This document shows positions 49,755 through 60,816 of a stretch of 64,000 nucleotides of DNA, piece after piece (the stretch's first letter is position 1; each line of letters begins with the position of its first letter). Position numbers and translations under genes: made by a program. Below the pieces are notes generated by a model. The model was not told the DNA's origin. It saw only the letters and a program-made list of their open reading frames with translations, and did not search any database. The DNA is from an uncultured Schlesneria sp. (GTDB lineage Bacteria > Planctomycetota > Planctomycetia > Planctomycetales > Planctomycetaceae), in contig CAIVEI010000032.1 in NCBI GenBank assembly GCA_903904835.1, positions 1-64,000 of the forward strand, written 5' to 3'.

Positions 49755-50363
49755 TCAGGGAAGCAGAGCGGCGAGGTCGGCGTGGGGGCGAGCGATGACA
49801 TCGGCCAGAATCAGTTTTCCGCCGAGGCGTTCGACAGTTTGGCGACCGACTTCGATGGCGGTTTGTACGGCAGCGACATCGCCACGGATCATGATCGTGA
49901 CGTAGGCGGCACCGATCTTTTCTTTGCCGGCCAACGTGACGTTCGATGCTTTCAACATATCATCGGTCGCGTGCAAGGCGGCGACGAGACCTTGAGTTTC
50001 CAACAGTCCGAGTGCATTCGTAGTCGACATAGCGTTCTCTCTGGGTTTGCGAATATCGTATCCACCGAGCAACGGACTAAAAACAGGCTTTGAGTCCGCT
50101 AAGTTATAAGTCAGTTCCAGGGGGGCGGCCATCACCGAATAGAAGGCCGAACTTCCCATCATTTTTGCAATGGCAGCACCCCGTTCGGCGGCTGCCTGAA
50201 CGTCCGAGACCGGCCCGACTAGCTTGATGCACTGGGCGGCACCGTCCGTGCTTTCGATGCCGAGGATGCGGACGTTGGCCGCCTTCGAGCACGCATCCGC
50301 GACGATAAACGAAGGAGCCAGGTTATTCACTTCGATCAGTGCGAGGCTCAACGAATTATTCAT
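49755..50363 (-). CDS. Tandem bacterial microcompartment (BMC-T) shell protein
   Basis: 202 residues carrying two BMC domains. Domain 1 (about 5-90) has SLALIEVNNLAPSFIVADAC and KLVGPVSDVQAAAERG. Domain 2 (about 116-202) has the canonical ALGLLETQGLVAALHATDDML, KIGAAYVTIMIRGDVAAVQTA and the hallmark ARPHADLAALLP. Tandem shell proteins form trimers with pores in microcompartment shells. The gene stands alone: no other shell protein, enzyme or regulator of a microcompartment is nearby. An in-frame ATG at 50030 (MSTTNALGL) with AGAGAG upstream could give a 91-residue single-domain BMC protein too. Planctomycetes carry a PVM-type compartment for fucose and rhamnose; whether this shell protein belongs to it is unknown. 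Confidence 0.92.
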   Translation of the reverse strand: MNNSLSLALIEVNNLAPSFIVADACSKAANVRILGIESTDGAAQCIKLVGPVSDVQAAAERGAAIAKMMGSSAFYSVMAAPLELTYNLADSKPVFSPLLGGYDIRKPRENAMSTTNALGLLETQGLVAALHATDDMLKASNVTLAGKEKIGAAYVTIMIRGDVAAVQTAIEVGRQTVERLGGKLILADVIARPHADLAALLP

Positions 50364-50912: not shown

Positions 50913-52229
50913 ATGCTGTCGCGTGTTGCCATCCGCCGTTTCACAATCGTTTGTCTTTCGCTATCGGTGGTGATCTGGCTGGGGTGGAAATCATCGTCTT
51001 TCGGTGAATCCAGTTCTGGTGGCTCCGCAACCAATCGGGGGGGCAAAACGTCGAAGTCTATGACGGCGAAGGGGCTCGATTCGTTACTAAAATCGAAGAT
51101 GGAATCCCATTGGAAAAAGGGGTTGTCTTCGATAACGTCTGAATCCTTAAGCGACGACGAGATCGTTGAATCGCTCGTTCGATTCGTGAATCGAGAAACG
51201 GCATCTGAAAACTTGACGCCGCCGCTCATCCGAGCAATGTCGCTGTTAGCTGAGGCGAAGCAGGCACAGGCCTCAGATTCATTAGCCAAAATCTTGGGTT
51301 CCGGAGATTTCCGCATGGTGATGGCGGCAGCCGACATCGCCTCGACGACCAAAGATCGGGGATTTTTGGAACCCTTGATGAAACTGACGGCGCGGCGTGA
51401 GTATGCGCAGCGATATGGATTCAGGCGCTGCGTTTTAGATGCGGTAGCAAAATATCCCGATAAGACGGCGGTCGACTTTCTGGTCGATCAACTTGAACAA
51501 TCTGACGGTCAGCTCAAATATGAAACCGCCCTCAATCTTCAGCGAATTACCGGTCAGGAATTTGGTGGAATTGCCACGGACTGGCGTAGCTGGTGGCAAA
51601 AGAACCGCGACGATTTCGTGTTTTCCTCACGCGTGCAGGCATCGCAATCGGTCGCTCTTAAAGTCGCCCCCAAGCCGATTCCGTGGGATGAGCCGCGGCC
51701 CAGTTTTTACGGGATGACGATTTACGCAAAACGAGTCGTGTTCGTGATCGACCGCTCAGGAAGCATGAATTCTTCGGTAAAATATGAAACTCGGCTCGAA
51801 AGAGCTCAGAAAGAACTTCAAAAAGCGATCAAGGAACTGACGGAATCGGACTACTTCAATATCGTCGCGTTCGACGATCGAATGGAGGTGTTCCAAACGA
51901 AACTCGTCCAGGCGACGGACGCCAATAAACTTGACGGTATTCGGTTCGGATACGGCCTTCAGCCGCGAGGGGACACAGCCTGTTACGAACCGCTGAAGAT
52001 GGGACTGGATGCAAGCAACGATCTTGAATTGATGTTGTTTTTGTCGGATGGGGAACCCAATGCAGGGGCGTTGGTTGATCCCCAGGCGATCGTCGTCGCA
52101 ATCGCCAATCATAACCTGACGCAGCGTACGACGATTAACACATTGGGAATCGACGCTCGCAACCTCCACGAGGCCTTCTTGAAGAACCTCGCGGAAAAGA
52201 ATTACGGCAAATTGCTTCTACTTCGTTGA
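50913..52229 (+). CDS. Secreted von Willebrand factor A-domain protein
   Basis: 438 residues. An N-terminal hydrophobic segment (RFTIVCLSLSVVIWLGW) is a signal peptide or anchor. A Ser/Gly linker and a helical region (about 75-230) with HEAT-like helices follow. The VWA domain (about 270-438) has the complete MIDAS: VVFVIDRSGSM (280-285), Thr in GDTACYEPL, and FLSDGEPNAG. VWA domains bind proteins through a metal. First gene of a same-strand run of three; the next ORF starts 26 bp later (overlapping in its longest form). Confidence 0.9.
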   Translation: MLSRVAIRRFTIVCLSLSVVIWLGWKSSSFGESSSGGSATNRGGKTSKSMTAKGLDSLLKSKMESHWKKGLSSITSESLSDDEIVESLVRFVNRETASENLTPPLIRAMSLLAEAKQAQASDSLAKILGSGDFRMVMAAADIASTTKDRGFLEPLMKLTARREYAQRYGFRRCVLDAVAKYPDKTAVDFLVDQLEQSDGQLKYETALNLQRITGQEFGGIATDWRSWWQKNRDDFVFSSRVQASQSVALKVAPKPIPWDEPRPSFYGMTIYAKRVVFVIDRSGSMNSSVKYETRLERAQKELQKAIKELTESDYFNIVAFDDRMEVFQTKLVQATDANKLDGIRFGYGLQPRGDTACYEPLKMGLDASNDLELMLFLSDGEPNAGALVDPQAIVVAIANHNLTQRTTINTLGIDARNLHEAFLKNLAEKNYGKLLLLR

Positions 52230-52255
52230 TTGTCCGGGTGAAAGGTGGACGCGAA

Positions 52256-54100
52256 ATGAATCGAAACATCTGCCGCAACCTGATTTACGTGAGCGTGATT
52301 CTTTGTCTGACGATATCGACAATCGGTGCAAATAAGCCGAAGCCGTCGTCATCGGCAACTGATGCGGTGGAGCGGTTGCTGGAAAAAGAGTCACAGTCAG
52401 CGACGCCGTCGCTCGATCGGCGTGATGCGTTGAAGCCGGAATCGCGACCGGTCAGCGACCCGGAATCGGTCTGGTGGCAAGCGGGCTTTATTCACTCAGG
52501 AGGCCATTGGCTGCCGTATGAAAAGAGCGTTGCTGAGGGTGAACAGGCTGCAAAAGTTGAAGAGTACAGCAAACAGCGTGCGGCGCTTGCGGATGAACCA
52601 CATGGTCAATGGAAATTAGCAAACTGGTGTCGCAAGAACGGGATGCTCGATCAAGAACGAGTCCATTTGTTGCGGGTGCTCGTCGAGCGAGATCCCACCG
52701 TCAAAACAGATACCGTTTACGAACGACTGGGTTGTCAAAAAGTCGGCGAAGTATGGGTTTCGCCGCAAGAACGACTCGAAACGGCCAGAATCAAGTCTGA
52801 GATGGAAACGTCGTTTAAACGTTGGGAATCAAAGCTCGCGGTCATTATTCAACAGTTGGAAGGAACGCCCAAACAACGGAAGTCGGCCGAGCGAAAGTTG
52901 GCAGAAATCACAGATCCTTCAGCCGTTCCAGCAATCGTAAATGCTTTTTGTATTTCGACGCAATCGATGGCAGACTACGGTGTGAGAACCCTCGGTCAAA
53001 TTCCCGAATATCAGGCATCACGCGCCCTGGCCGGCCAGGCAACTTTTTCGCCGTGGAAGCCCGTTCGGACTGCAGCGATTGAACTACTCAAACAACGTAA
53101 GCTGGTCGAGTTTGTACCCGAACTTTTGTTGGTGCTTTCAAACCCTGTTCGGACTAAACATAACCTCGACGTTCAAACAGACGGTCTGCGGGTGCCAAAC
53201 TTTCGGCTGAATTGGGACTACGCCTGGATTGAAGAGACTCACGACACGATTCGCGTCGGAATACGGCGGTTATTCCCAATATCCACGCCGAATAGTATTG
53301 CCGCCGGGAGCGGCTTTTTGCCCTCGTTCGCTCGCAACCCGTCCGAAGCCCGGGCTGAACTTAAAGCGAGAATTGGTTCTCGACTTATGGATCTCTATGA
53401 TCAATCGGAAAAACTTGACTATACAGCCGACCTGATGAATGATGCTCGAAAAGAAATCAACGAGAGGGTGGGCGTTGTCTTATCGACATGCTCCGATCTG
53501 CCAATGACGCCCGAACCCAAAGTCTGGTGGAATTGGTGGGCAAATTTCTCTGACTCCCAATTACCAACTCAAAAAAATATCGTCGTCGTTGATGAGCGTA
53601 AAACACAACCGAACGTGCCATCAATTGCCGTTACGCAAAGACTTCATAGTTGCCTGGTCGCAGGGACTCCCGTATGGACCGAATGCGGTTTCGTGGCGAT
53701 CGAACAGATCAAGCCCGGCGATCGAGTGCTGGCAAAAGATATTGAGACAGGTGAGCTTGCCTATAAAGCTGTCTTGCAAACAACCGTTCGACCTCCAACA
53801 CCGGTGCATCAGTTCGAAGTTGAAGGCAAGACCATTGTGGCGAGTCTTGGCCATCATTTCTGGGTCAGTGGTGAAGGCTGGACCAAAACGCGAGAACTCA
53901 TCCCCGATCATCCAGTCCACACCGCAACGGGGATGCATCGGATTACTGCGGTCGAGGACAAAGGGCGAGTCGAGCCCGTATATAACCTGGTGGTCGCGGA
54001 CTTCCACACGTACTTTGTGGGCGATGCGATGGTGCTCAGTCATGATGTCTTGCCCCCAAGTCTGACAAATGTCAAAATACCAGGATTATCACCTCGGTAG
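52256..54100 (+). CDS. Secreted protein with C-terminal Hint (intein-like) domain
   Basis: 614 residues from ATG 52256 (AGGTGG upstream; a longer frame starts at TTG 52226, overlapping the previous stop). A signal peptide is followed by a charged helical region with HEAT-like and EF-G-like pieces. The Hint domain starts at Cys466 (SCLVAGTPVWTECGFVAIEQ) and includes KPGDRVLAKD, a TxxH-like HHFWVSGEGW block and VYNLVVADFHTYFVGD, ending VLSHD where inteins usually end HN. Only 17 residues follow. Hint domains cleave or splice their own backbone; in polymorphic toxins (PT-HINT) they release a C-terminal toxin. No toxin domain follows here. Second gene of the run of three. Confidence 0.85.
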   Translation: MNRNICRNLIYVSVILCLTISTIGANKPKPSSSATDAVERLLEKESQSATPSLDRRDALKPESRPVSDPESVWWQAGFIHSGGHWLPYEKSVAEGEQAAKVEEYSKQRAALADEPHGQWKLANWCRKNGMLDQERVHLLRVLVERDPTVKTDTVYERLGCQKVGEVWVSPQERLETARIKSEMETSFKRWESKLAVIIQQLEGTPKQRKSAERKLAEITDPSAVPAIVNAFCISTQSMADYGVRTLGQIPEYQASRALAGQATFSPWKPVRTAAIELLKQRKLVEFVPELLLVLSNPVRTKHNLDVQTDGLRVPNFRLNWDYAWIEETHDTIRVGIRRLFPISTPNSIAAGSGFLPSFARNPSEARAELKARIGSRLMDLYDQSEKLDYTADLMNDARKEINERVGVVLSTCSDLPMTPEPKVWWNWWANFSDSQLPTQKNIVVVDERKTQPNVPSIAVTQRLHSCLVAGTPVWTECGFVAIEQIKPGDRVLAKDIETGELAYKAVLQTTVRPPTPVHQFEVEGKTIVASLGHHFWVSGEGWTKTRELIPDHPVHTATGMHRITAVEDKGRVEPVYNLVVADFHTYFVGDAMVLSHDVLPPSLTNVKIPGLSPR

Positions 54101-55468
54101 ATGATTCGTCTGCCGTTCCGCGAAAAGTTCAGACATCGCTGGAGTCGACGAATGGGGACTGCCTTTCCCAGTGCCACAAAAATCATCTCCCTTTTATTGA
54201 TGCTGTCAGTATTGGCTGGCGCGGAAGATTTGACTCCGGCCCAGCAAACTCTTCTTGGTCAGCAAGTGGCCGAAATGTTTCAGGTCGGTTACGCACGCGG
54301 TCCTAAAGCCAATGCTGACGTTCAACGTCTCTACGAATCACTTAAAAAAGATGCGTCACATGATCCACGCGTAGACTATGCCCACGGGCTGGTTCTTTGG
54401 CGTTTGCTGAAGAACAAAGAAGCACAGGCCGAATTCGCTGTTGCGACAAAACGAAAAGGGACTCCCTATTGGCCGGCATGGCAGGGTCTAATCTGGACTC
54501 ACTTCGTCGCGAAAGATTATGACGCCGGTTACGCCCGGTTATTGGAGTTCACCGGGCTCGTCATGAAATCAGACGAGTTGGTCGGCCATGAGCGGGAGGA
54601 TCAGGTTTATTGGATCGGGCGTGTGATGGCGGCCCTGTATCTGACGATTGAATCGAATCAAGGTCGTGAGACGTGGCTTCAAACGGAAAAGAAGTTAACC
54701 GATCTTTTGGGACCAGATTCGACCGACGACTACAACAGCGGAAAGACGACCGTGAATGCGCGACATTCCGATATCGAGGACGATATCCGGCAGACACGCG
54801 AAAAGACGCAAAAGCAACAGGCCGAACTGCTTGAAAAGAAACAGAGTCGAGTTCAGAAAAACCTCGAAGACGTCAAAGAAAAACGCGAGAACCTGAAAAA
54901 GACTGCGGAGGAGATGAAAGAGGCTTTGGCGGAGCAAACGGCTGCGTATCAAAAGCAAATGACTCGACTGGAAAAAGACTATGGATTTGTTGAACGTCGT
55001 TCTGCAGCCCTGATCAGTTCCATGGCAGCTCTCGATCAAGAGATTGCGATACTTCAGCAAAGGAAAAAGAACTCGAACACCAATACTGCAAATCAAATTG
55101 ATCAGGCAATTGCGAATATTCAAAGTCAGCGATTTGCCTATAGCGGAGAACTCGCGAAATCAATGGCAGCCGCCGATCAGATTTCTGCGAGCGCTCAACG
55201 GTTAACGCAAGAACGGGCTGAATTCCTCGAACAGTACCAGAATGTCACCGGAGAAATCGTCCAGCAAGAAGCAGGTGCAGAAAAGTGGAAAGAACGTAAT
55301 CTGAAACAGGCGGCACAATTAAAAAAGGCCCATGCCAATCCTAAGCCGGTTGTCCCTGCTGGAAAAATTCAGCTCGCCAAGACCTTTCGTACCTATGTCG
55401 ATCTCGATCTTTATGCCGAACGAACCAAGGTGCTAGAGTCCTTCGGCGTCGTCTCCCTTGGTAAATAA
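54101..55468 (+). CDS. Exported coiled-coil protein
   Basis: 455 residues. ATG 54101 directly follows the stop of the Hint gene (TAG then ATG), so translation is coupled. The N-terminus is basic, followed by a signal peptide (IISLLLMLSVLAGAED). A helical TPR-like region (about 50-200) precedes a long Lys/Glu-rich coiled coil (about 215-415) with heptads such as KKQSRVQKNLEDVKEKRENL. No enzyme domain. It probably acts as a scaffold or adhesion partner for the two preceding exported proteins. Last gene of the run; it converges on the Nramp-related gene. Confidence 0.85.
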   Translation: MIRLPFREKFRHRWSRRMGTAFPSATKIISLLLMLSVLAGAEDLTPAQQTLLGQQVAEMFQVGYARGPKANADVQRLYESLKKDASHDPRVDYAHGLVLWRLLKNKEAQAEFAVATKRKGTPYWPAWQGLIWTHFVAKDYDAGYARLLEFTGLVMKSDELVGHEREDQVYWIGRVMAALYLTIESNQGRETWLQTEKKLTDLLGPDSTDDYNSGKTTVNARHSDIEDDIRQTREKTQKQQAELLEKKQSRVQKNLEDVKEKRENLKKTAEEMKEALAEQTAAYQKQMTRLEKDYGFVERRSAALISSMAALDQEIAILQQRKKNSNTNTANQIDQAIANIQSQRFAYSGELAKSMAAADQISASAQRLTQERAEFLEQYQNVTGEIVQQEAGAEKWKERNLKQAAQLKKAHANPKPVVPAGKIQLAKTFRTYVDLDLYAERTKVLESFGVVSLGK

Positions 55469-55477
55469 GCTTCTGGG

Positions 55478-56950
55478 TTATTTGGCTGCCGCGACGGGTG
55501 CGATGTATTTCAGAATCTGGTCACGTAGTGCATAGATCGCCACGAGCGTGATGGAGACAAACGCTATCCAGAGCAGGATATCGAGAATCAGCGGCGGGGT
55601 GATGCGCCGATCCAGCTTGCGATATCGGAAATAAATGGTTGACGCCGTAATGATCGGCAACGTTAATGCCTGGCCGAATCCGCCAACCACCACCATCCAT
55701 TTTGGCTCTTTAAACGCCAGAAACAGGCTGAGGGCAATCACAGGAATCGAAAGCGAGATCCAGTGAATCACGCGGCCTCGTTGATGGGGATCACGGTAGC
55801 GCACGATCCCGGCGAGATTGAAAAGGTCCGCTGCCAATCGGGCATTTCCCGCCGCTGACAGATAGAGTGTTTTGAACAGCACGGCACCTGCGCCAATCAA
55901 AAACGCGATTTGTGTCCAGCTTCCAAACGGACCGACAAACATTCCGGACAACGTCAGGATCATATCCTTACCCTGAGGTGCCAATCCTTGAGGATGCAGA
56001 ACCGTCGCCCCCATGAAAAAGAACGCAACGGTCGAAATCGTGAAGACCACCATGCTGACCCAGGCATCCAGATACATCACCCGAATCCAGCCGCGCGCTC
56101 GATGGACCCATTCCGGGCTGTTATCCATTATCCCCACATTGCGTGCATACCCTTTTTCCAGGCACCAATAGGGGTAGTAGAACAACTCGGATGCACCGAC
56201 TCCGGTGATTCCGAACACTCCGAAAGCGATGGCGAATTCACCGGCCGGCAAGCTGAACGTGAGCCCCTGAGCCACTTCATTCCACGGAATTGGAAATTTT
56301 GTTGCAGGTAACGCGAGAGCCGCGGTCACGGTGACCAATGTCAGGCCAACAACGAGAACCGTGGTGACGGATTCGATTCGTCGGTAGCTGCCACTCCACA
56401 AAAGCAGGATCGCCGTCAGGCATGTCAGCACGGCCCAGGGATAATCGGGCCGTTCCTTTAAAATCTCGGCCAGTTGTGGAACGGCGTCGATAAAGCAATT
56501 CGCAACGGAAGGGCTGAAATTGGGGAAGGCGAGATTCAGCGATTGTCCGACGGTTCCCGTCATTGCACCAAGCTGAAAGATCGTGGTGCACATCATCACG
56601 AACCACCACCAGCAGATCCAGTTGGCACCAAGCCGAGGGCCACCAAGTTCGTTTAGCGCTCCCAGCGTCGGCTTGCCAGATGAGATCGCATAACGACCTA
56701 GTTCCGTTTGAACGAAGACTTTGATCACGCAACTGAACAGGATCAGCCACAGAAAGACGAATCCGGTTTTGGCGCCTAATGCTGTTGTGAGCAGAAGCTC
56801 GCCCGAACCCACGATCGTGCCGGCGAGAATAATTCCAGGGCCAATTTTGCGTAATGCCGTCCACAACGATATTGGCGGCTCTTGAACCGCTTCGGGTGGC
56901 AAGGCGTACGGATCATACTCCGTGTCTTCATTCATTTCAGCGTCTTTCAT
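55478..56950 (-). CDS. Nramp-related membrane transporter lacking canonical metal motifs
   Basis: 490 residues, about 11 membrane helices. The N-terminal helix GPGIILAGTIVGSGELLLTTALG aligns with Nramp TM1, but the usual DPGN metal motif is replaced by GTIVGSGE. The TM6 region reads GVFGITGVGASELFYYPYWC, where true Nramps have an MPH motif. It belongs to a Nramp-like clade common in Planctomycetes and Actinobacteria, whose substrate is not established. Classic Mn2+/Fe2+ transport should not be assumed. ATG 56950 or 56935. Confidence 0.85.
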   Translation of the reverse strand: MKDAEMNEDTEYDPYALPPEAVQEPPISLWTALRKIGPGIILAGTIVGSGELLLTTALGAKTGFVFLWLILFSCVIKVFVQTELGRYAISSGKPTLGALNELGGPRLGANWICWWWFVMMCTTIFQLGAMTGTVGQSLNLAFPNFSPSVANCFIDAVPQLAEILKERPDYPWAVLTCLTAILLLWSGSYRRIESVTTVLVVGLTLVTVTAALALPATKFPIPWNEVAQGLTFSLPAGEFAIAFGVFGITGVGASELFYYPYWCLEKGYARNVGIMDNSPEWVHRARGWIRVMYLDAWVSMVVFTISTVAFFFMGATVLHPQGLAPQGKDMILTLSGMFVGPFGSWTQIAFLIGAGAVLFKTLYLSAAGNARLAADLFNLAGIVRYRDPHQRGRVIHWISLSIPVIALSLFLAFKEPKWMVVVGGFGQALTLPIITASTIYFRYRKLDRRITPPLILDILLWIAFVSITLVAIYALRDQILKYIAPVAAAK

Positions 56951-57116
56951 CCGGCTGCTTTAAAGAAATGGCCCTGCATTCTCCGGCCTTACGCCGACAA
57001 AGCAAGCGCACGAACGAATTGCCTTGTTTTCGTAGCATGGGCTTCAGCTCGTGCTACAACAAATAAAATATAGTGGCGCACGAAAAAGCCCTTGCCACGG
57101 CTTGCGACTCGCCCGG

Positions 57117-58487
57117 TCAGGCCATGACCCCGGTGACAATCCGTCCCGCAGAGACGGGAAGTGGACGATTGAGTTTGTCACGAAGTTCCGTCTGCGGGTC
57201 GATCCCCATCAGTGCAAAAATCGTTGCCATCAGATCATCGAGCTGCACAGGGTCTTTATCGGGATATGCCGCCTGTTTGTCTGACGAGCCGTAAACGAAG
57301 CCTCGTTTAACTCCGCCTCCCGCCAAGAGGACGGTATAGCACTGCGGCCAATGGTCGCGGCTGATGTTGTCGTTTAGCCGCGGTGTCCGGCCGAATTCAC
57401 CCATCCAGACGATGAGCGTGTCGTCGAACAGGCCTCGTTCCTTCAAGTCGGTAATCAGGGTCGGTAACGTCTGATCGGTCAGCGGCAACTGATATTCGGA
57501 AAGGATGGGGTACATCCGCGTATTGTCAAAACCATGGGTATCCCAGCCTCCCTCATTACGCCGTCCGCCAATAGTGTTGGAAAAATAAACGTTGACAAAT
57601 TTCACTCCTGATTCGACCAGCCGTCTTGCCAGCAGACAACTTTGTCCGTAGGTTGTGCGGCCGTATTTGTCTCGAACCGATTGCGGTTCTGCAGCCAAAT
57701 TGAATGCATCGCGAACTTTAGAGGAATTGAGCATTCCCAAAGTCTTTTCGTAGTACGCATCCAGACCACGTGCGGCTGGCGATTGCGCAAGCTGATTAAC
57801 CTGGCGATTAATGAGTTGCTGAATCTCGCGCCGGTCGTGCAACCGTTCGGCCGTCAACCCGCTGGGCAGGCTCAATTCCGGTAATGAGAAGCGACGGTCA
57901 TTGGGATCTGATGCAACGAGTAGCGGATCGTGGCCTTTTCCCAGGAAGCTGGCATGCTGGCCTGGCGTGATTTCGCCGTCTCGCATAACATGAGGAAACG
58001 CCACGAAAGTCGGCATTCCGTTTGTGTTCGGTGCCAGTTGATCAACAACAGATCCGTAGGCGGGAAACAAGTCTTGCGAATCGCGAAGACGAATATCATC
58101 CAGCGGCGGTGCGTGGCCTGTCAGTGCGTAATACGCAGCCGGATTATGATTTTTCATCGTGTGATGGACGGTCCGAATGAGTGTGACGTCATTCATGACA
58201 AGGGCGGTCTTCGGCAATTGATCGCAAATCTGGATTCCCGGGGCCGATGTTTCGATCACGCCGTAATGACTTCGCACACCCGCCGGCGCATTCGGTTTGG
58301 GATCGAAGGTGTCGAGGTGACTCGGTCCGCCAAACTGATAGAGGAAGATTACCGACTTGGCTCGACCGGGCTTTGCCTCAGTCCTTTCCGCTGCGCGCAT
58401 CAACTTGGGCAACGTTAAACCCAGCAGCCCCGTTCCACCGATCTGAATCGCCTTACGTCGTGGGATTAAACCCGATTCATTCCACAT
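57117..58487 (-). CDS. DUF1501 exported protein
   Basis: 456 residues from ATG 58487, with GGAGGT upstream. A Tat-like signal (PRRKAIQIGGTGLLGL) is followed by the DUF1501 body: VIFLYQFGGPSHLDTFDPKP, HHTMKNHNPAAYYALTGH, GWDTHGFDN and WMGEFGRTPRLNDN, the metal-binding motifs of the alkaline phosphatase/sulfatase-like fold. DUF1501 proteins almost always pair with DUF1549/DUF1553 proteins in planctomycetes, as here (gap 34 bp). Function not established; hydrolysis of sulfate or phosphate esters in polysaccharide breakdown is one idea (inference). Confidence 0.93.
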   Translation of the reverse strand: MWNESGLIPRRKAIQIGGTGLLGLTLPKLMRAAERTEAKPGRAKSVIFLYQFGGPSHLDTFDPKPNAPAGVRSHYGVIETSAPGIQICDQLPKTALVMNDVTLIRTVHHTMKNHNPAAYYALTGHAPPLDDIRLRDSQDLFPAYGSVVDQLAPNTNGMPTFVAFPHVMRDGEITPGQHASFLGKGHDPLLVASDPNDRRFSLPELSLPSGLTAERLHDRREIQQLINRQVNQLAQSPAARGLDAYYEKTLGMLNSSKVRDAFNLAAEPQSVRDKYGRTTYGQSCLLARRLVESGVKFVNVYFSNTIGGRRNEGGWDTHGFDNTRMYPILSEYQLPLTDQTLPTLITDLKERGLFDDTLIVWMGEFGRTPRLNDNISRDHWPQCYTVLLAGGGVKRGFVYGSSDKQAAYPDKDPVQLDDLMATIFALMGIDPQTELRDKLNRPLPVSAGRIVTGVMA

Positions 58488-58521
58488 GATGATTAACCTC
58501 CACCGGTACCTTGGGCTCGCC

Positions 58522-60816
58522 CTATCGACGCAGCAGAAACTCGTTCGAATTAAACAATCCCCAGGCGATGTCTTCGATCGCCTGGCGACGATCTTTTGAT
58601 TTTTCGAGAAACTGAACCGTTGCCGATAATTCATCCTGATTCGGAGATCGCGAGATTGTCATCCAGTAAAGTTCGGTGACAATCTCGGCCGGTGTCTTTT
58701 GGGATGTCGCCAAAGAAGCGAGAGAGTTCCCATTAGTCGTTAACATCCGATTGATCAACGAACCACTAACCAGTTGAAAAGTCTGGCCGAGCGTTGTCTC
58801 GTCCGATCGTTCACAATCGCACGATTGCAGTCGCGGCGGCTTGCCAAACAATTTCAAGAATCGATCCGCTTCACTTTGCGCGTTATTCCGCTCGCGACTT
58901 GATGGGACACCGGGCAATTGGGCCGCACGGCGACCGGTTGGGTAGCCGGCAAAGTCGAGTGGAACACCAAGAACCTGGCTCGTCGCGTCGAGTAATTGCT
59001 CGGCCGAATGTCGCCGAACGAACGCGTGACTGAAATTCGATTCATCGTCGCGGTTAGTTTCGTTAACGCTGGAAGAAAGCTGGTAAGTGCGCGAGTTCAA
59101 GATCACACGCAACAGTTTGCGTAAATTGAACCGGTCGTCGTTCTGACTCGCCGATGATGTGGCATCACTTGTTCCATTAACAAGGTGATTCGCGATCGCG
59201 TTCAGCAATGCGGGATTGGACGGGGGGTTCGTTGCACGGAAGTCGTCGATCGGATCAACGATCCCACGGCCCATGACTTGTTGCCATGTTCGATTGGCGA
59301 GCATCTGCGCGAATCGGTCGTTATGGGGATCTGTCAACCAGGCTGCCAGTCCCGTTAAGGGATCTTGTTGCGGTTCAAGTCCCTTCGTATCACCCAGGAA
59401 CTTTGCTGAGCGAGTCTTGTCTATTCGTGGATCTTTGGCTTCGCCCGAATCCTTCAGAAAGACAATCTGTTCGCCGTCGAATTCGTGCGAGTCGTTGGAG
59501 TCACGGCGGCGGTTTTCGATAATCTTGTAATCGACACGAGAAAAAACGCTACCCCAACTGTAATAGTCGTCTTGCGTCCAGCGATCAAAGGGGTGGTTGT
59601 GGCACTTGGAACATTGCAACCTGACTCCCAGGAACAATTGGCCAATTGCTTCTGAGCGTTCAAATGGAGTGCGCAAAGCCCGATAGAAGTTTGCTGGCGG
59701 CACTTCATACGTACTCCCTCGCCCGGCGACGACTTCTCGAACCAGTTGGTCAAGCGGTTTATGCGTGGAGAAGGCGTCCCGCAACCAACCATGAAAGTTT
59801 TCGACCCCTTTTCGGTCGAGTGTCTTTTCTTCAACTCGAAGCAGGTCCGACCATTTCATCGCCCACCAATCAGCGAATTCGGGCCGTTCGAGCAGAGAAT
59901 TGATTAATGCTAAACGCTTGCCTGTCGAGGGATCGTTAACGAATTGCCTGGCTTCGTCCGCAGTCGGAGGAAGCCCCAATAAGTCGAAAGTCACCCGCCG
60001 GATGAACGTTGCGTCGTCGCAAACAGGCGATGGGTTAACATTGATTTTTCGCAGTTTCGAAAAGACGAATTCGTCGACAAAATTGGCTGGCTCGGGTGCA
60101 GACCAGACAAAGTTGGGGCGTTGTGGAACAAATGCAATTCTGACTGCAACCTGTTGCTGCAGGTAACGGACGATCACGGTAATTTCACCGGCGGAGTGTC
60201 CAGTGACCAGTCCATCATGTGAAACAACAGCAATTGGTTGTGAGACCTCGTAAACGGCAAGCGACGTGACATCTCGCGACGAACCATCCGAAAAATCGGC
60301 GGTTGCCGTGATTTGATGTCGCCAGTCGGATGAACCAGAAGTTGCTTCTTCCGTCAGAAAAACTTCGTCCGGGGTGACTCGTAAGCGGACCAACTGGCGA
60401 GCATCCGGTCTGTCGTCAGGCATTCCTGAAGAAATCCATTCCCGAAGAAGGTGGTATTCATAGGAATCGACCGAGAAACGCTTGCCCCCTTCGTGAGCCA
60501 TCCGCATCGAAGGTTTGAGTAACAAAAGACTTTGATCTGGATCGTTCGAATTGGATCGTCGTCCGTAAAGATCGCGAGTCAGAACTGCAAAGTCGGCAGT
60601 TGGATCTTGTCCTCGCAGTGAGATCTGAAATCCCCCTTTGCCCCGTGCGTTTCCATGACACGTACCAAGGTTACAACCCGACTTCGACAGGACCGCCATG
60701 ACATCGTTACGAAACGAAATCTCTGCAGCGGTCATGGAGCTTTGGAAAATGAAATTCCAGGCCACGATCGTGCCGAGAAATGCCAGACGAAATTTCAAGA
60801 GAAAGTCCAAAAACAA
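58522..60816 (-). CDS. DUF1549/DUF1553 exported protein with N-terminal cytochrome-like motif and Ig-like domain
   Basis: 764 residues. A signal peptide (FLGTIVAWNFIFQSSMTAAE) leads to a cysteine-rich start (SKSGCNLGTCHGNARGKGGF), a CxxxxCH pattern reminiscent of haem c sites in planctomycete cytochromes but one or two residues longer than CxxCH. A Big-2/Ig-like segment (about 140-215) follows, then DUF1549 (LRKINVNPSPVCDDATFIRR, FDLLGLPPTADEARQF, WAMKWSDLLRVEEKT) and DUF1553 (LTGLAAWLTDPHNDRFAQML through RRHSAEQLLDATSQVLGVPL). It is operonic with the DUF1501 gene. The start is a TTG at 60816 with weak support. Confidence 0.9.
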   Translation of the reverse strand: MFLDFLLKFRLAFLGTIVAWNFIFQSSMTAAEISFRNDVMAVLSKSGCNLGTCHGNARGKGGFQISLRGQDPTADFAVLTRDLYGRRSNSNDPDQSLLLLKPSMRMAHEGGKRFSVDSYEYHLLREWISSGMPDDRPDARQLVRLRVTPDEVFLTEEATSGSSDWRHQITATADFSDGSSRDVTSLAVYEVSQPIAVVSHDGLVTGHSAGEITVIVRYLQQQVAVRIAFVPQRPNFVWSAPEPANFVDEFVFSKLRKINVNPSPVCDDATFIRRVTFDLLGLPPTADEARQFVNDPSTGKRLALINSLLERPEFADWWAMKWSDLLRVEEKTLDRKGVENFHGWLRDAFSTHKPLDQLVREVVAGRGSTYEVPPANFYRALRTPFERSEAIGQLFLGVRLQCSKCHNHPFDRWTQDDYYSWGSVFSRVDYKIIENRRRDSNDSHEFDGEQIVFLKDSGEAKDPRIDKTRSAKFLGDTKGLEPQQDPLTGLAAWLTDPHNDRFAQMLANRTWQQVMGRGIVDPIDDFRATNPPSNPALLNAIANHLVNGTSDATSSASQNDDRFNLRKLLRVILNSRTYQLSSSVNETNRDDESNFSHAFVRRHSAEQLLDATSQVLGVPLDFAGYPTGRRAAQLPGVPSSRERNNAQSEADRFLKLFGKPPRLQSCDCERSDETTLGQTFQLVSGSLINRMLTTNGNSLASLATSQKTPAEIVTELYWMTISRSPNQDELSATVQFLEKSKDRRQAIEDIAWGLFNSNEFLLRR

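What the first reader, a model, noticed from the sequence alone, without database searches (positions are those of the whole stretch)
50913..55468. Three-gene exported operon: VWA, Hint and coiled-coil proteins
The genes are adjacent on the plus strand with gaps of 26 and 0 bp. All carry N-terminal export signals. A VWA protein-binding domain, an autoprocessing Hint domain and a long coiled coil together suggest a surface assembly in which the Hint protein cleaves itself. Only 17 residues follow the Hint domain, so it does not look like a standard polymorphic toxin.
Basis: partly seen in the sequence, partly recalled or inferred. Interest (0 to 1): 0.75.

Follow-up and report, generated by a model that had tools for sequence, protein, structure and literature searches.

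The report
Self-cleaving planctomycete HEAT-Hint gene trio
A cluster of three probably exported bacterial proteins, one of them a likely self-cutting relative of inteins and animal Hedgehog, recurs in many planctomycete genera with changing gene order, which suggests a real working unit.

Summary
The three genes are real and their linkage goes far beyond close strains. Over 170 genomes of the window's family, VWA, HEAT-Hint and coiled-coil (CC) genes lie together in 13 genomes of 7 genera, in four gene orders; CC and HEAT-Hint are adjacent in 31 genomes of 15 genera. [quoted passage not shown] It keeps the N-terminal machinery (Cys466, Ser530, His533) but has Asp597 at the place of the terminal Asn: D in 64 and G in 1 of 65 family rows. 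Other PT-HINT domains of the class end in HN in 22 of 23 readable rows, with about 100-290 residues after them; here 17 follow. I conclude: probably an N-terminally self-cleaving precursor, not a splicing or toxin-releasing one; no cleavage has been shown. In five genomes of three genera the CC domain ends a Ser/Thr kinase; in one genus HEAT-Hint genes stand beside it, and two loci there have a sigma-factor gene upstream. Correction: the CC gene probably starts at 54152, so its gap is 51 bp, not 0.

The parts
50913..52229 (+). Gene 1: probably exported HEAT-like + VWA protein (438 aa)
   Evidence: ORF; Pfam VWA_2 E 1.6e-9, HEAT_2 2e-4 but below cut-off; hydrophobic N terminus
51732..52208 (+). 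VWA domain (residues 274-432) with D280, S282, S284, T355, D379 kept
52256..54100 (+). Gene 2: probably exported HEAT-Hint precursor (614 aa)
   Evidence: structure model mean pLDDT 87.7
53597..53650 (+). Linker before the predicted cleavage site (residues 448-465); model confidence below 50 at residues 450-461
53651..54046 (+). Hint/BIL domain (residues 466-597): Cys466, Ser530, His533, Asn577, His584, His596, Asp597
   Evidence: PF07591; 2lwy Z 18.5, rmsd 1.3, 135 residues; residue counts
54047..54097 (+). C-terminal tail (residues 598-614, Val at +1, T604-N605...P609-G610)
   Evidence: Pro-Gly in 62 of 65 family rows
54101..54151 (+).
54152..55468 (+).
54236..54709 (+).
   Evidence: AlphaFold model; Foldseek matches weak, best row of any kind E 0.02
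54713..55336 (+). Two long helices (205-323, 327-412), read as a coiled-coil hairpin

Best explanation
The trio encodes an exported, extracytoplasmic module. The HEAT-Hint protein is made as a precursor. Its Hint domain shifts the Ser465-Cys466 bond to a thioester (N-S acyl shift by Cys466, helped by Ser530 and His533). The thioester is then resolved by water or by another nucleophile, which frees the HEAT part or ties it to a partner. Because the terminal Asn is replaced by Asp (Gly in one lineage) and no Cys/Ser/Thr follows, the domain is not expected to splice or to cut efficiently at its C terminus; the 17-residue tail stays on the Hint domain and probably serves fold or docking. The CC protein is the usual partner and the VWA protein an optional, probably metal-dependent binding subunit. 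Shown: gene linkage, residue conservation, predicted fold, purifying selection. Inferred: export, cleavage, partner contacts. The second nucleophile is unknown.
For: Linkage: 13 three-gene clusters in 7 genera with 4 gene orders, CC+HINT adjacent in 31 genomes of 15 genera, out of 170 genomes searched. Built-in control: of 42 VWA rows, 17 of the 19 strongest (E <= 1e-84) lie beside CC or HINT, and 0 of the 23 weaker ones do. Fold: Hint residues 471-600 modelled at pLDDT 93-97; best PDB match 2lwy, a BIL domain (E 1.7e-37 by profile; Z 18.5). The structural alignments pair residue 466 with residue 1 of inteins and residue 258 of Hedgehog, and end by pairing residue 597 with 2in0 440, 1am2 198 and 2keq 137 (that these are the terminal Asn of those inteins is recalled). 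Residues: Cys in 64 of 64 readable family rows, [ST] and His of the S/TxxH motif in 65 of 65, position 597 D in 64 and G in 1 of 65. Control: non-HEAT PT-HINT domains of the same class end in HN in 22 of 23 readable rows; HEAT-linked ones in 0 of 10. Selection: dN/dS of the Hint domain 0.07-0.11 against 0.15-0.22 for the HEAT part in three pairs.
Against: No cleavage has been seen. Inteins with a C-terminal Asp or Gln are reported to splice (title of a 2004 paper seen only in a reference list; in one intein changing Gln to Asn sped C-terminal cleavage 20-fold, so Gln works slowly); C-terminal cleavage is not excluded. 27 of 65 family rows have Asn one residue later (HDN), which could act in its place; the window has Val there. 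One of the 10 HEAT-linked control rows (L226) has Ile instead of Ser/Thr at position 530 and one (L232) Asn-Asp instead of His-Asp, so the motif is not without exception. 28 of 63 CC rows and 23 HEAT-Hint places stand without a partner (some cut by contig ends), so the trio is not obligatory. In G003 CC is kept without HINT or VWA beside it.
Confidence: 0.5

Rival explanations
1. Full BIL-type behaviour: both N- and C-terminal cleavage (Asp597 cyclises), releasing a 17-residue peptide or ligating it back on the HEAT part.
For: His596 and His584 are present in the window and the tail's Pro-Gly is conserved; variants at the terminal residue can still react.
Against: Asn absent from this position in 65 of 65 family rows, with Gly in Thalassoglobus neptunius (L186 = G172) and in G176 of the same genus code; the penultimate His is Q, Y or F in 8 of 65 rows; no +1 nucleophile.
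Confidence: 0.2
2. Polymorphic toxin or its decayed remnant: the Hint domain once released a C-terminal toxin that is now lost.
For: Best Pfam match is the pretoxin HINT family; toxin-type PT-HINT proteins are common in the class.
Against: 16-50 residues follow in the 10 HEAT-linked control rows and 17 in the window, against 96-289 in the non-HEAT rows; Pro-Gly tail conserved; Hint domain more constrained than the HEAT part; the recurring neighbours are VWA and CC; no PADLOC match.
Confidence: 0.06
3. The Hint domain is an inactive binding or structural domain and the cluster works without any cleavage.
For: No activity data; positions 584 and 596 vary, and one control row lacks the Ser/Thr at 530.
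Against: Cys466 and His533 are invariant over rows down to about 25% identity to the window protein, hard to explain without chemistry.
Confidence: 0.18
4. Neighbourhood kept by chance or simple inheritance; the three proteins are unrelated in function.
For: 28 of 63 CC rows and 25 of 42 VWA rows lie elsewhere.
Against: Four three-gene orders plus both pair orders over 15 genera (same strand was a condition of the count).
Confidence: 0.06

Closest known systems
Bacterial intein-like (BIL) domain, Clostridium thermocellum, PDB 2lwy
   Same: Same fold (Z 18.5, rmsd 1.3 over 135 residues, 36% identity) and N-terminal half motifs; no +1 nucleophile
   Different: The terminal His-Asn of type A BILs (PMC4031507) is His-Asp here; host protein is a HEAT-repeat protein in a recurring gene cluster
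PT-HINT of polymorphic toxins (PF07591)
   Same: Best Pfam match; C-terminal position; probably exported host protein
   Different: No toxin-sized part after it and no HN
Hedgehog autoprocessing (Hog) domain, PDB 1at0 / 6tyy
   Same: Fold (Z 15.2-15.6); expected use of the N-terminal thioester only (PMC7664689 passage for Hedgehog); secreted N-terminal part
   Different: PF01079 15.6 bits, cut-off 29.7; no Hedge domain match; acceptor unknown
Eukaryotic VWA-Vint proteins (PMC2362128)
   Same: VWA and Hint domains in one unit
   Different: There one polypeptide, described as without signal peptide, with a Vwaint domain between; here separate genes
Receptor-like Ser/Thr kinases with a neighbouring ECF-type sigma gene (their commonness in planctomycetes is recalled)
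   Same: In genus g67 the CC domain is the C-terminal half of such a kinase, beside HEAT-Hint genes
   Different: In the window CC is a free protein with no kinase or sigma gene in the trio

Membership tests
Bacterial intein-like (BIL) type A | Hint fold with N-terminal Cys and block B T/SxxH | tested here: met
Bacterial intein-like (BIL) type A | C-terminal His-Asn | tested here: not met
   His596-Asp597; Asn in 0 of 65 family rows at this position
Bacterial intein-like (BIL) type A | No Cys/Ser/Thr directly after the domain | tested here: met
   Val598
Bacterial intein-like (BIL) type B | No similarity to intein block G; cleavage uncoupled from splicing (PMC4031507) | tested here: inconclusive
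   Block G partly kept (SHD); activity not testable
Polymorphic toxin with PT-HINT | Toxin domain after the Hint domain | tested here: not met
   17 residues; control
Polymorphic toxin with PT-HINT | Adjacent immunity gene | tested here: inconclusive
   Recurring neighbours are VWA and CC; no dedicated immunity-gene search beyond Pfam, NCBIfam and PADLOC scans
Hedgehog (Hog) | Match to PF01079 above cut-off, Hedge domain | tested here: not met
   15.6 bits against 29.7; no Hedge match among the Pfam families listed
Hedgehog (Hog) | Sterol transfer to the N-terminal part | not testable with these tools
   needs biochemistry
VWA-Vint | VWA and Hint on one polypeptide | tested here: not met
   separate genes
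HEAT-Hint family as defined here | HEAT part + Hint with Asp/Gly at the terminal position + short tail (Pro-Gly in most) | tested here: met
   in the class 90 of 248 genomes match at E 1e-30 and, by my count of the table, 73 at 1e-50; the weaker ones may be Hint-only

The most novel reading that the evidence does not exclude
A Hedgehog-like secreted signalling system in bacteria: HEAT-Hint precursors use their thioester to release the HEAT part or tether it to a non-protein acceptor or neighbour protein, and the CC protein is its sensor or receptor. In some genera the CC domain is built directly into a membrane Ser/Thr kinase, in one of them with a sigma-factor gene upstream, so that processing outside would control transcription inside.
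Probability: 0.12. Interest if true: 0.92.

Novelty: new variant of a known kind. Interest (0 to 1): 0.62.

Why it matters
Bacterial Hint domains outside inteins are often read as toxin-release devices. Here is a class-wide planctomycete family in which the Hint domain is under strong constraint but has neither a toxin to release nor the Asn used for ordinary C-terminal cleavage, and whose window branch is tied to recurring partners, one of which turns up at the C-terminal end of kinases. That makes a testable bacterial counterpart of Hedgehog-type processing and names genes in a poorly understood part of planctomycete cell-envelope biology.

Tried and rejected
Toxin or toxin remnant: rejected on payload length, the HN/HD contrast and constraint. 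Anti-phage defence: no PADLOC match for the three proteins at E 0.001. Known fold for the CC protein: Foldseek gave only weak matches (best E 0.02), so it is described by shape alone. Promoters and terminators: 3 promoter-like and 13 terminator-like sites against 3.7 and 6.2 expected in shuffles, none of the promoter-like ones upstream of gene 1; I draw nothing from this. Other neighbours within 5 kb of HEAT-Hint in the named loci: apart from HINT, CC and VWA no BLAST cluster reached more than 6 loci, with a simple ORF caller. The HEAT-Hint search over the phylum gave no answer; the class was searched instead. The VIA-align list covers the Hint region only; nothing is claimed from it about the fold of the HEAT part. 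Papers: five searches listed no paper that by title or start of abstract treats HEAT-Hint proteins in Planctomycetes; two searches listed 12 of 13 papers each, and of these only passages of PMC3482391 were read. The library lacks most subscription journals.

Rows dropped before counting: all 63 CC rows and all 42 VWA rows were given, but of the HINT rows only those down to about E 2e-42 plus three fragments; weaker HEAT-only or Hint-only rows were left out. In one search, 8 of 73 rows (L197, L198, L199, L201 twice, L203, L206 twice) are non-family rows and were set apart, leaving 65; several of the 65 are cut by contig ends so that their HEAT part is not seen. In one search two short fragments were set apart from 25 non-HEAT rows, 16 of the 22 HN endings were read by eye from the printed stretch, the window row was put by the script in the wrong group, and two of the ten HEAT rows (G017, G172) are the same genes as L160 and L186. 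Only the 30 loci of best matches were examined. The HEAT-Hint row of G022:C9 in alignment A2 (L061) has a mis-framed N-terminal part, because that gene is split over two frames; it was left out of A4. The tree scores CC and VWA as absent also where the fetched stretch ends near the gene. The named loci and the G genomes overlap (e.g. L138 = G001, L155 = G168, L186 = G172), so counts must not be added.
Full report
What is there. The window holds three plus-strand genes at 50913-52229, 52256-54100 and 54101-55468. Gene 1 is a HEAT-like + VWA protein that keeps the residues recalled as the VWA metal site. Gene 2 is a HEAT-repeat protein ending in a Hint domain (PF07591 E 1.7e-19; HEAT by profile match to artificial HEAT-repeat proteins, Pfam HEAT_2 below cut-off). 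Gene 3 has no Pfam family above cut-off; the model (mean pLDDT 86.7) shows a helical, TPR-like N-terminal part and two helices of 119 and 86 residues, read as a hairpin. A hydrophobic 12-mer within the first 70 residues is found in 4 of 5 VWA, 44 of 53 HINT and 22 of 26 CC rows; the interior control gave 2 of 53 for HINT and 9 of 26 for CC, so for CC this simple test is weak. The kinase-linked CC copies described below have a hydrophobic stretch between kinase and CC (seen by eye), which would put CC outside.

A correction. The start is therefore probably 54152 and the gap 51 bp.

Organism. The nearest relatives with the same locus are uncultured Schlesneria genomes (G001:C292 and L138's contig share the length 35426). 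In G001 and G002 the trio is followed by the same Nramp-like, DUF1501 and PSCyt2/PSD1 genes, in G005 by the Nramp-like gene up to the contig end; a BMC-domain gene lies before it in all three.

Is the neighbourhood conserved? Yes. Searching 170 genomes of the family with profiles found CC in 47, HEAT-Hint in 53 and VWA in 32 genomes at the thresholds used. By coordinates (same contig, same strand, gaps up to 1 kb), 13 genomes of 7 genera hold all three together: VWA-HINT-CC in 4, VWA-CC-HINT in 6, CC-VWA-HINT in 2, CC-HINT-VWA in 1. CC and HINT are together in 31 genomes of 15 genera. 35 of 63 CC rows have HINT or VWA beside them; 28 do not, some of them partial or weak matches. Of the VWA rows, 17 of the 19 strongest have a partner; of the 23 weaker ones none has. 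Among 70 named loci, which overlap with these genomes, 21 hold a CC match and 11 a VWA match. On a quick tree of 53 HEAT-Hint proteins the CC link changes 6 times and the VWA link 5 times; many HEAT-Hint genes, among them those of records named Pirellulales, have no CC match in the fetched stretch. In G003, which by its length of 7,067,087 bp is probably Schlesneria sp. DSM 10557 (PMC11812302, seen in a search listing with the start of its abstract), CC is followed by the Nramp-like orthologue as in the window, but HINT and VWA are not beside it; a 460-residue gene without Pfam match overlaps it by 4 bases. So CC + HEAT-Hint is the core, VWA optional, and none is strictly obligatory.

The Hint domain. 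The model of gene 2 has mean pLDDT 87.7, 93-97 over residues 471-600, and a low-confidence linker at 450-461 just before Cys466. By profile (E 1.7e-37), Foldseek (TM 0.88 to the target) and VIA-align (Z 18.5, rmsd 1.3, 135 residues) the nearest solved structure is the BIL domain 2lwy. The aligned ranges put residue 466 on residue 1 of inteins and on residue 258 of Hedgehog, and residue 597 on the residue recalled as the terminal Asn of several inteins. I could not read model coordinates, so side-chain geometry is untested.

Catalytic residues. Of 73 Hint rows, 65 belong to the family. Cys466 is present in 64 of 64 readable family rows, [ST]530 and His533 in 65 of 65. Position 597 is Asp in 64 and Gly in 1; 596 is His in 57, Gln in 4, Tyr in 2, Phe in 2; 598 is Asn in 27. 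A Pro-Gly pair 12-13 residues after 597 is present in 62 of 65; the other three (L190, L195, L196; two are Isosphaeraceae records) show FDA instead. As a control, 118 genomes of the class were searched with PF07591 (61 with a match at E 1e-10) and the 30 fetched loci examined: the 10 HEAT-linked rows end HD (7), HG (2) or ND (1) with 16-50 residues left, one of them with Ile at position 530; of 23 readable non-HEAT rows 22 end HN and one HH, with 96-289 residues left. The HEAT-linked Hint domain is thus a distinct type within one class of bacteria. dN/dS against three Schlesneria copies is 0.07-0.11 for the Hint domain and 0.15-0.22 for the HEAT part, 0.08-0.09 for VWA and 0.08-0.11 for CC against the copies compared (the 17-residue tail and 18-residue linker are too short for their values to mean much).

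How it probably works. The intein review PMC4031507 (passages read) assigns Cys1 with block B Thr and His to the first step, the amide-to-thioester shift, and the terminal Asn to C-terminal cleavage; type A BILs end in His-Asn and lack the +1 nucleophile, type B lack block G similarity. Here the step 1 residues are intact and the step 3 residue is changed, in one lineage to Gly, which cannot cyclise. The simplest reading is N-terminal cleavage at Ser465/Cys466 with the tail left on the Hint domain. Against certainty: variant terminal residues can react slowly, and 27 of 65 family rows carry Asn one position later (HDN), though not the window. Whether the thioester meets water, a partner's amine or a small molecule cannot be told from sequence.

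A hint at function. In three genomes of one genus (G166, G167, G168) the CC domain is the C-terminal half of a protein with an N-terminal Ser/Thr kinase domain (Pfam Pkinase E 2.5e-41 for G166 and 1.2e-40 for L155, the named record of the G168 locus; G167 read by eye), with HEAT-Hint genes directly downstream. In G166 and L155 a sigma-70/ECF-type gene lies directly upstream. In G050 and G099, of two further genera, a CC match of E 1e-18 and 2e-16 ends a protein with kinase and Ig-like domains; no HEAT-Hint gene was found near those. Domain fusion and adjacency make a signalling role for CC plausible, but in the window CC is free and no kinase lies in the trio.

Comparison with the known. It works most like a BIL or Hedgehog-type N-terminal autoprocessor, but fails the HN feature of type A BILs and the sequence threshold for Hog. 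It is not a polymorphic toxin as described in PMC3482391 (passages read), where the HINT peptidase sits just before a toxin domain. Eukaryotic VWA-Vint proteins (PMC2362128, section 12 and passages read) join VWA and Hint in one chain without signal peptide; that paper also mentions a group of bacterial proteins with a C-terminal Hint-like domain, whose species I saw only in part (myxobacteria and others). HEAT-Hint matches occur in 90 of 248 genomes of the class at E 1e-30 (73 at 1e-50 by my count of the table), with up to 10 matches in one genome, and CC in 9 of 294 genomes drawn from the phylum at E 1e-15.

Verdict. It is a new variant of a known kind: a BIL-like Hint domain with an altered terminal residue, in a recurring set of probably exported proteins. 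Interest 0.62.

Noticed in passing
window 49755-50363 (-): Protein with two bacterial-microcompartment (BMC, PF00936, E 6e-36) stretches, about 99% identical in three Schlesneria relatives; no other microcompartment genes were looked for.
   Followed up: no
window 55478-60816 (-): Nramp-like, DUF1501 and PSCyt2/PSD1 genes behind the trio, syntenic in G001 and G002. In G003 the Nramp-like orthologue follows CC; the next genes agree in strand and length only.
   Followed up: partly
L240:4731-8305, L155:4288-7919, L104-L106, L237, L238: CC domain at the C terminus of Ser/Thr kinase proteins, with a sigma-70/ECF-type gene directly upstream in L240 and L155.
   Followed up: partly
L052, L053 (G034, G038) and family f2: Tandem HEAT-Hint genes in G038 and G034 and up to 10 matches in one f2 genome; tails read there carry FDG or FDA in place of Pro-Gly.
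   Followed up: partly
G460: 30 PT-HINT matches listed in a single planctomycete genome, with 31 of 59 candidates scored; other genomes hold PT-HINT in open frames of up to 8255 codons.
   Followed up: no
L058:6243-8938 (G003): A 460-residue gene without Pfam match at E 0.01 overlaps CC by 4 bases, where the window has VWA and HINT.
   Followed up: partly
L037 / L140 (G005:C102) and L061 / L165 (G022:C9): HEAT-Hint copies split over two overlapping ORFs, possibly frameshifts or assembly errors.
   Followed up: no
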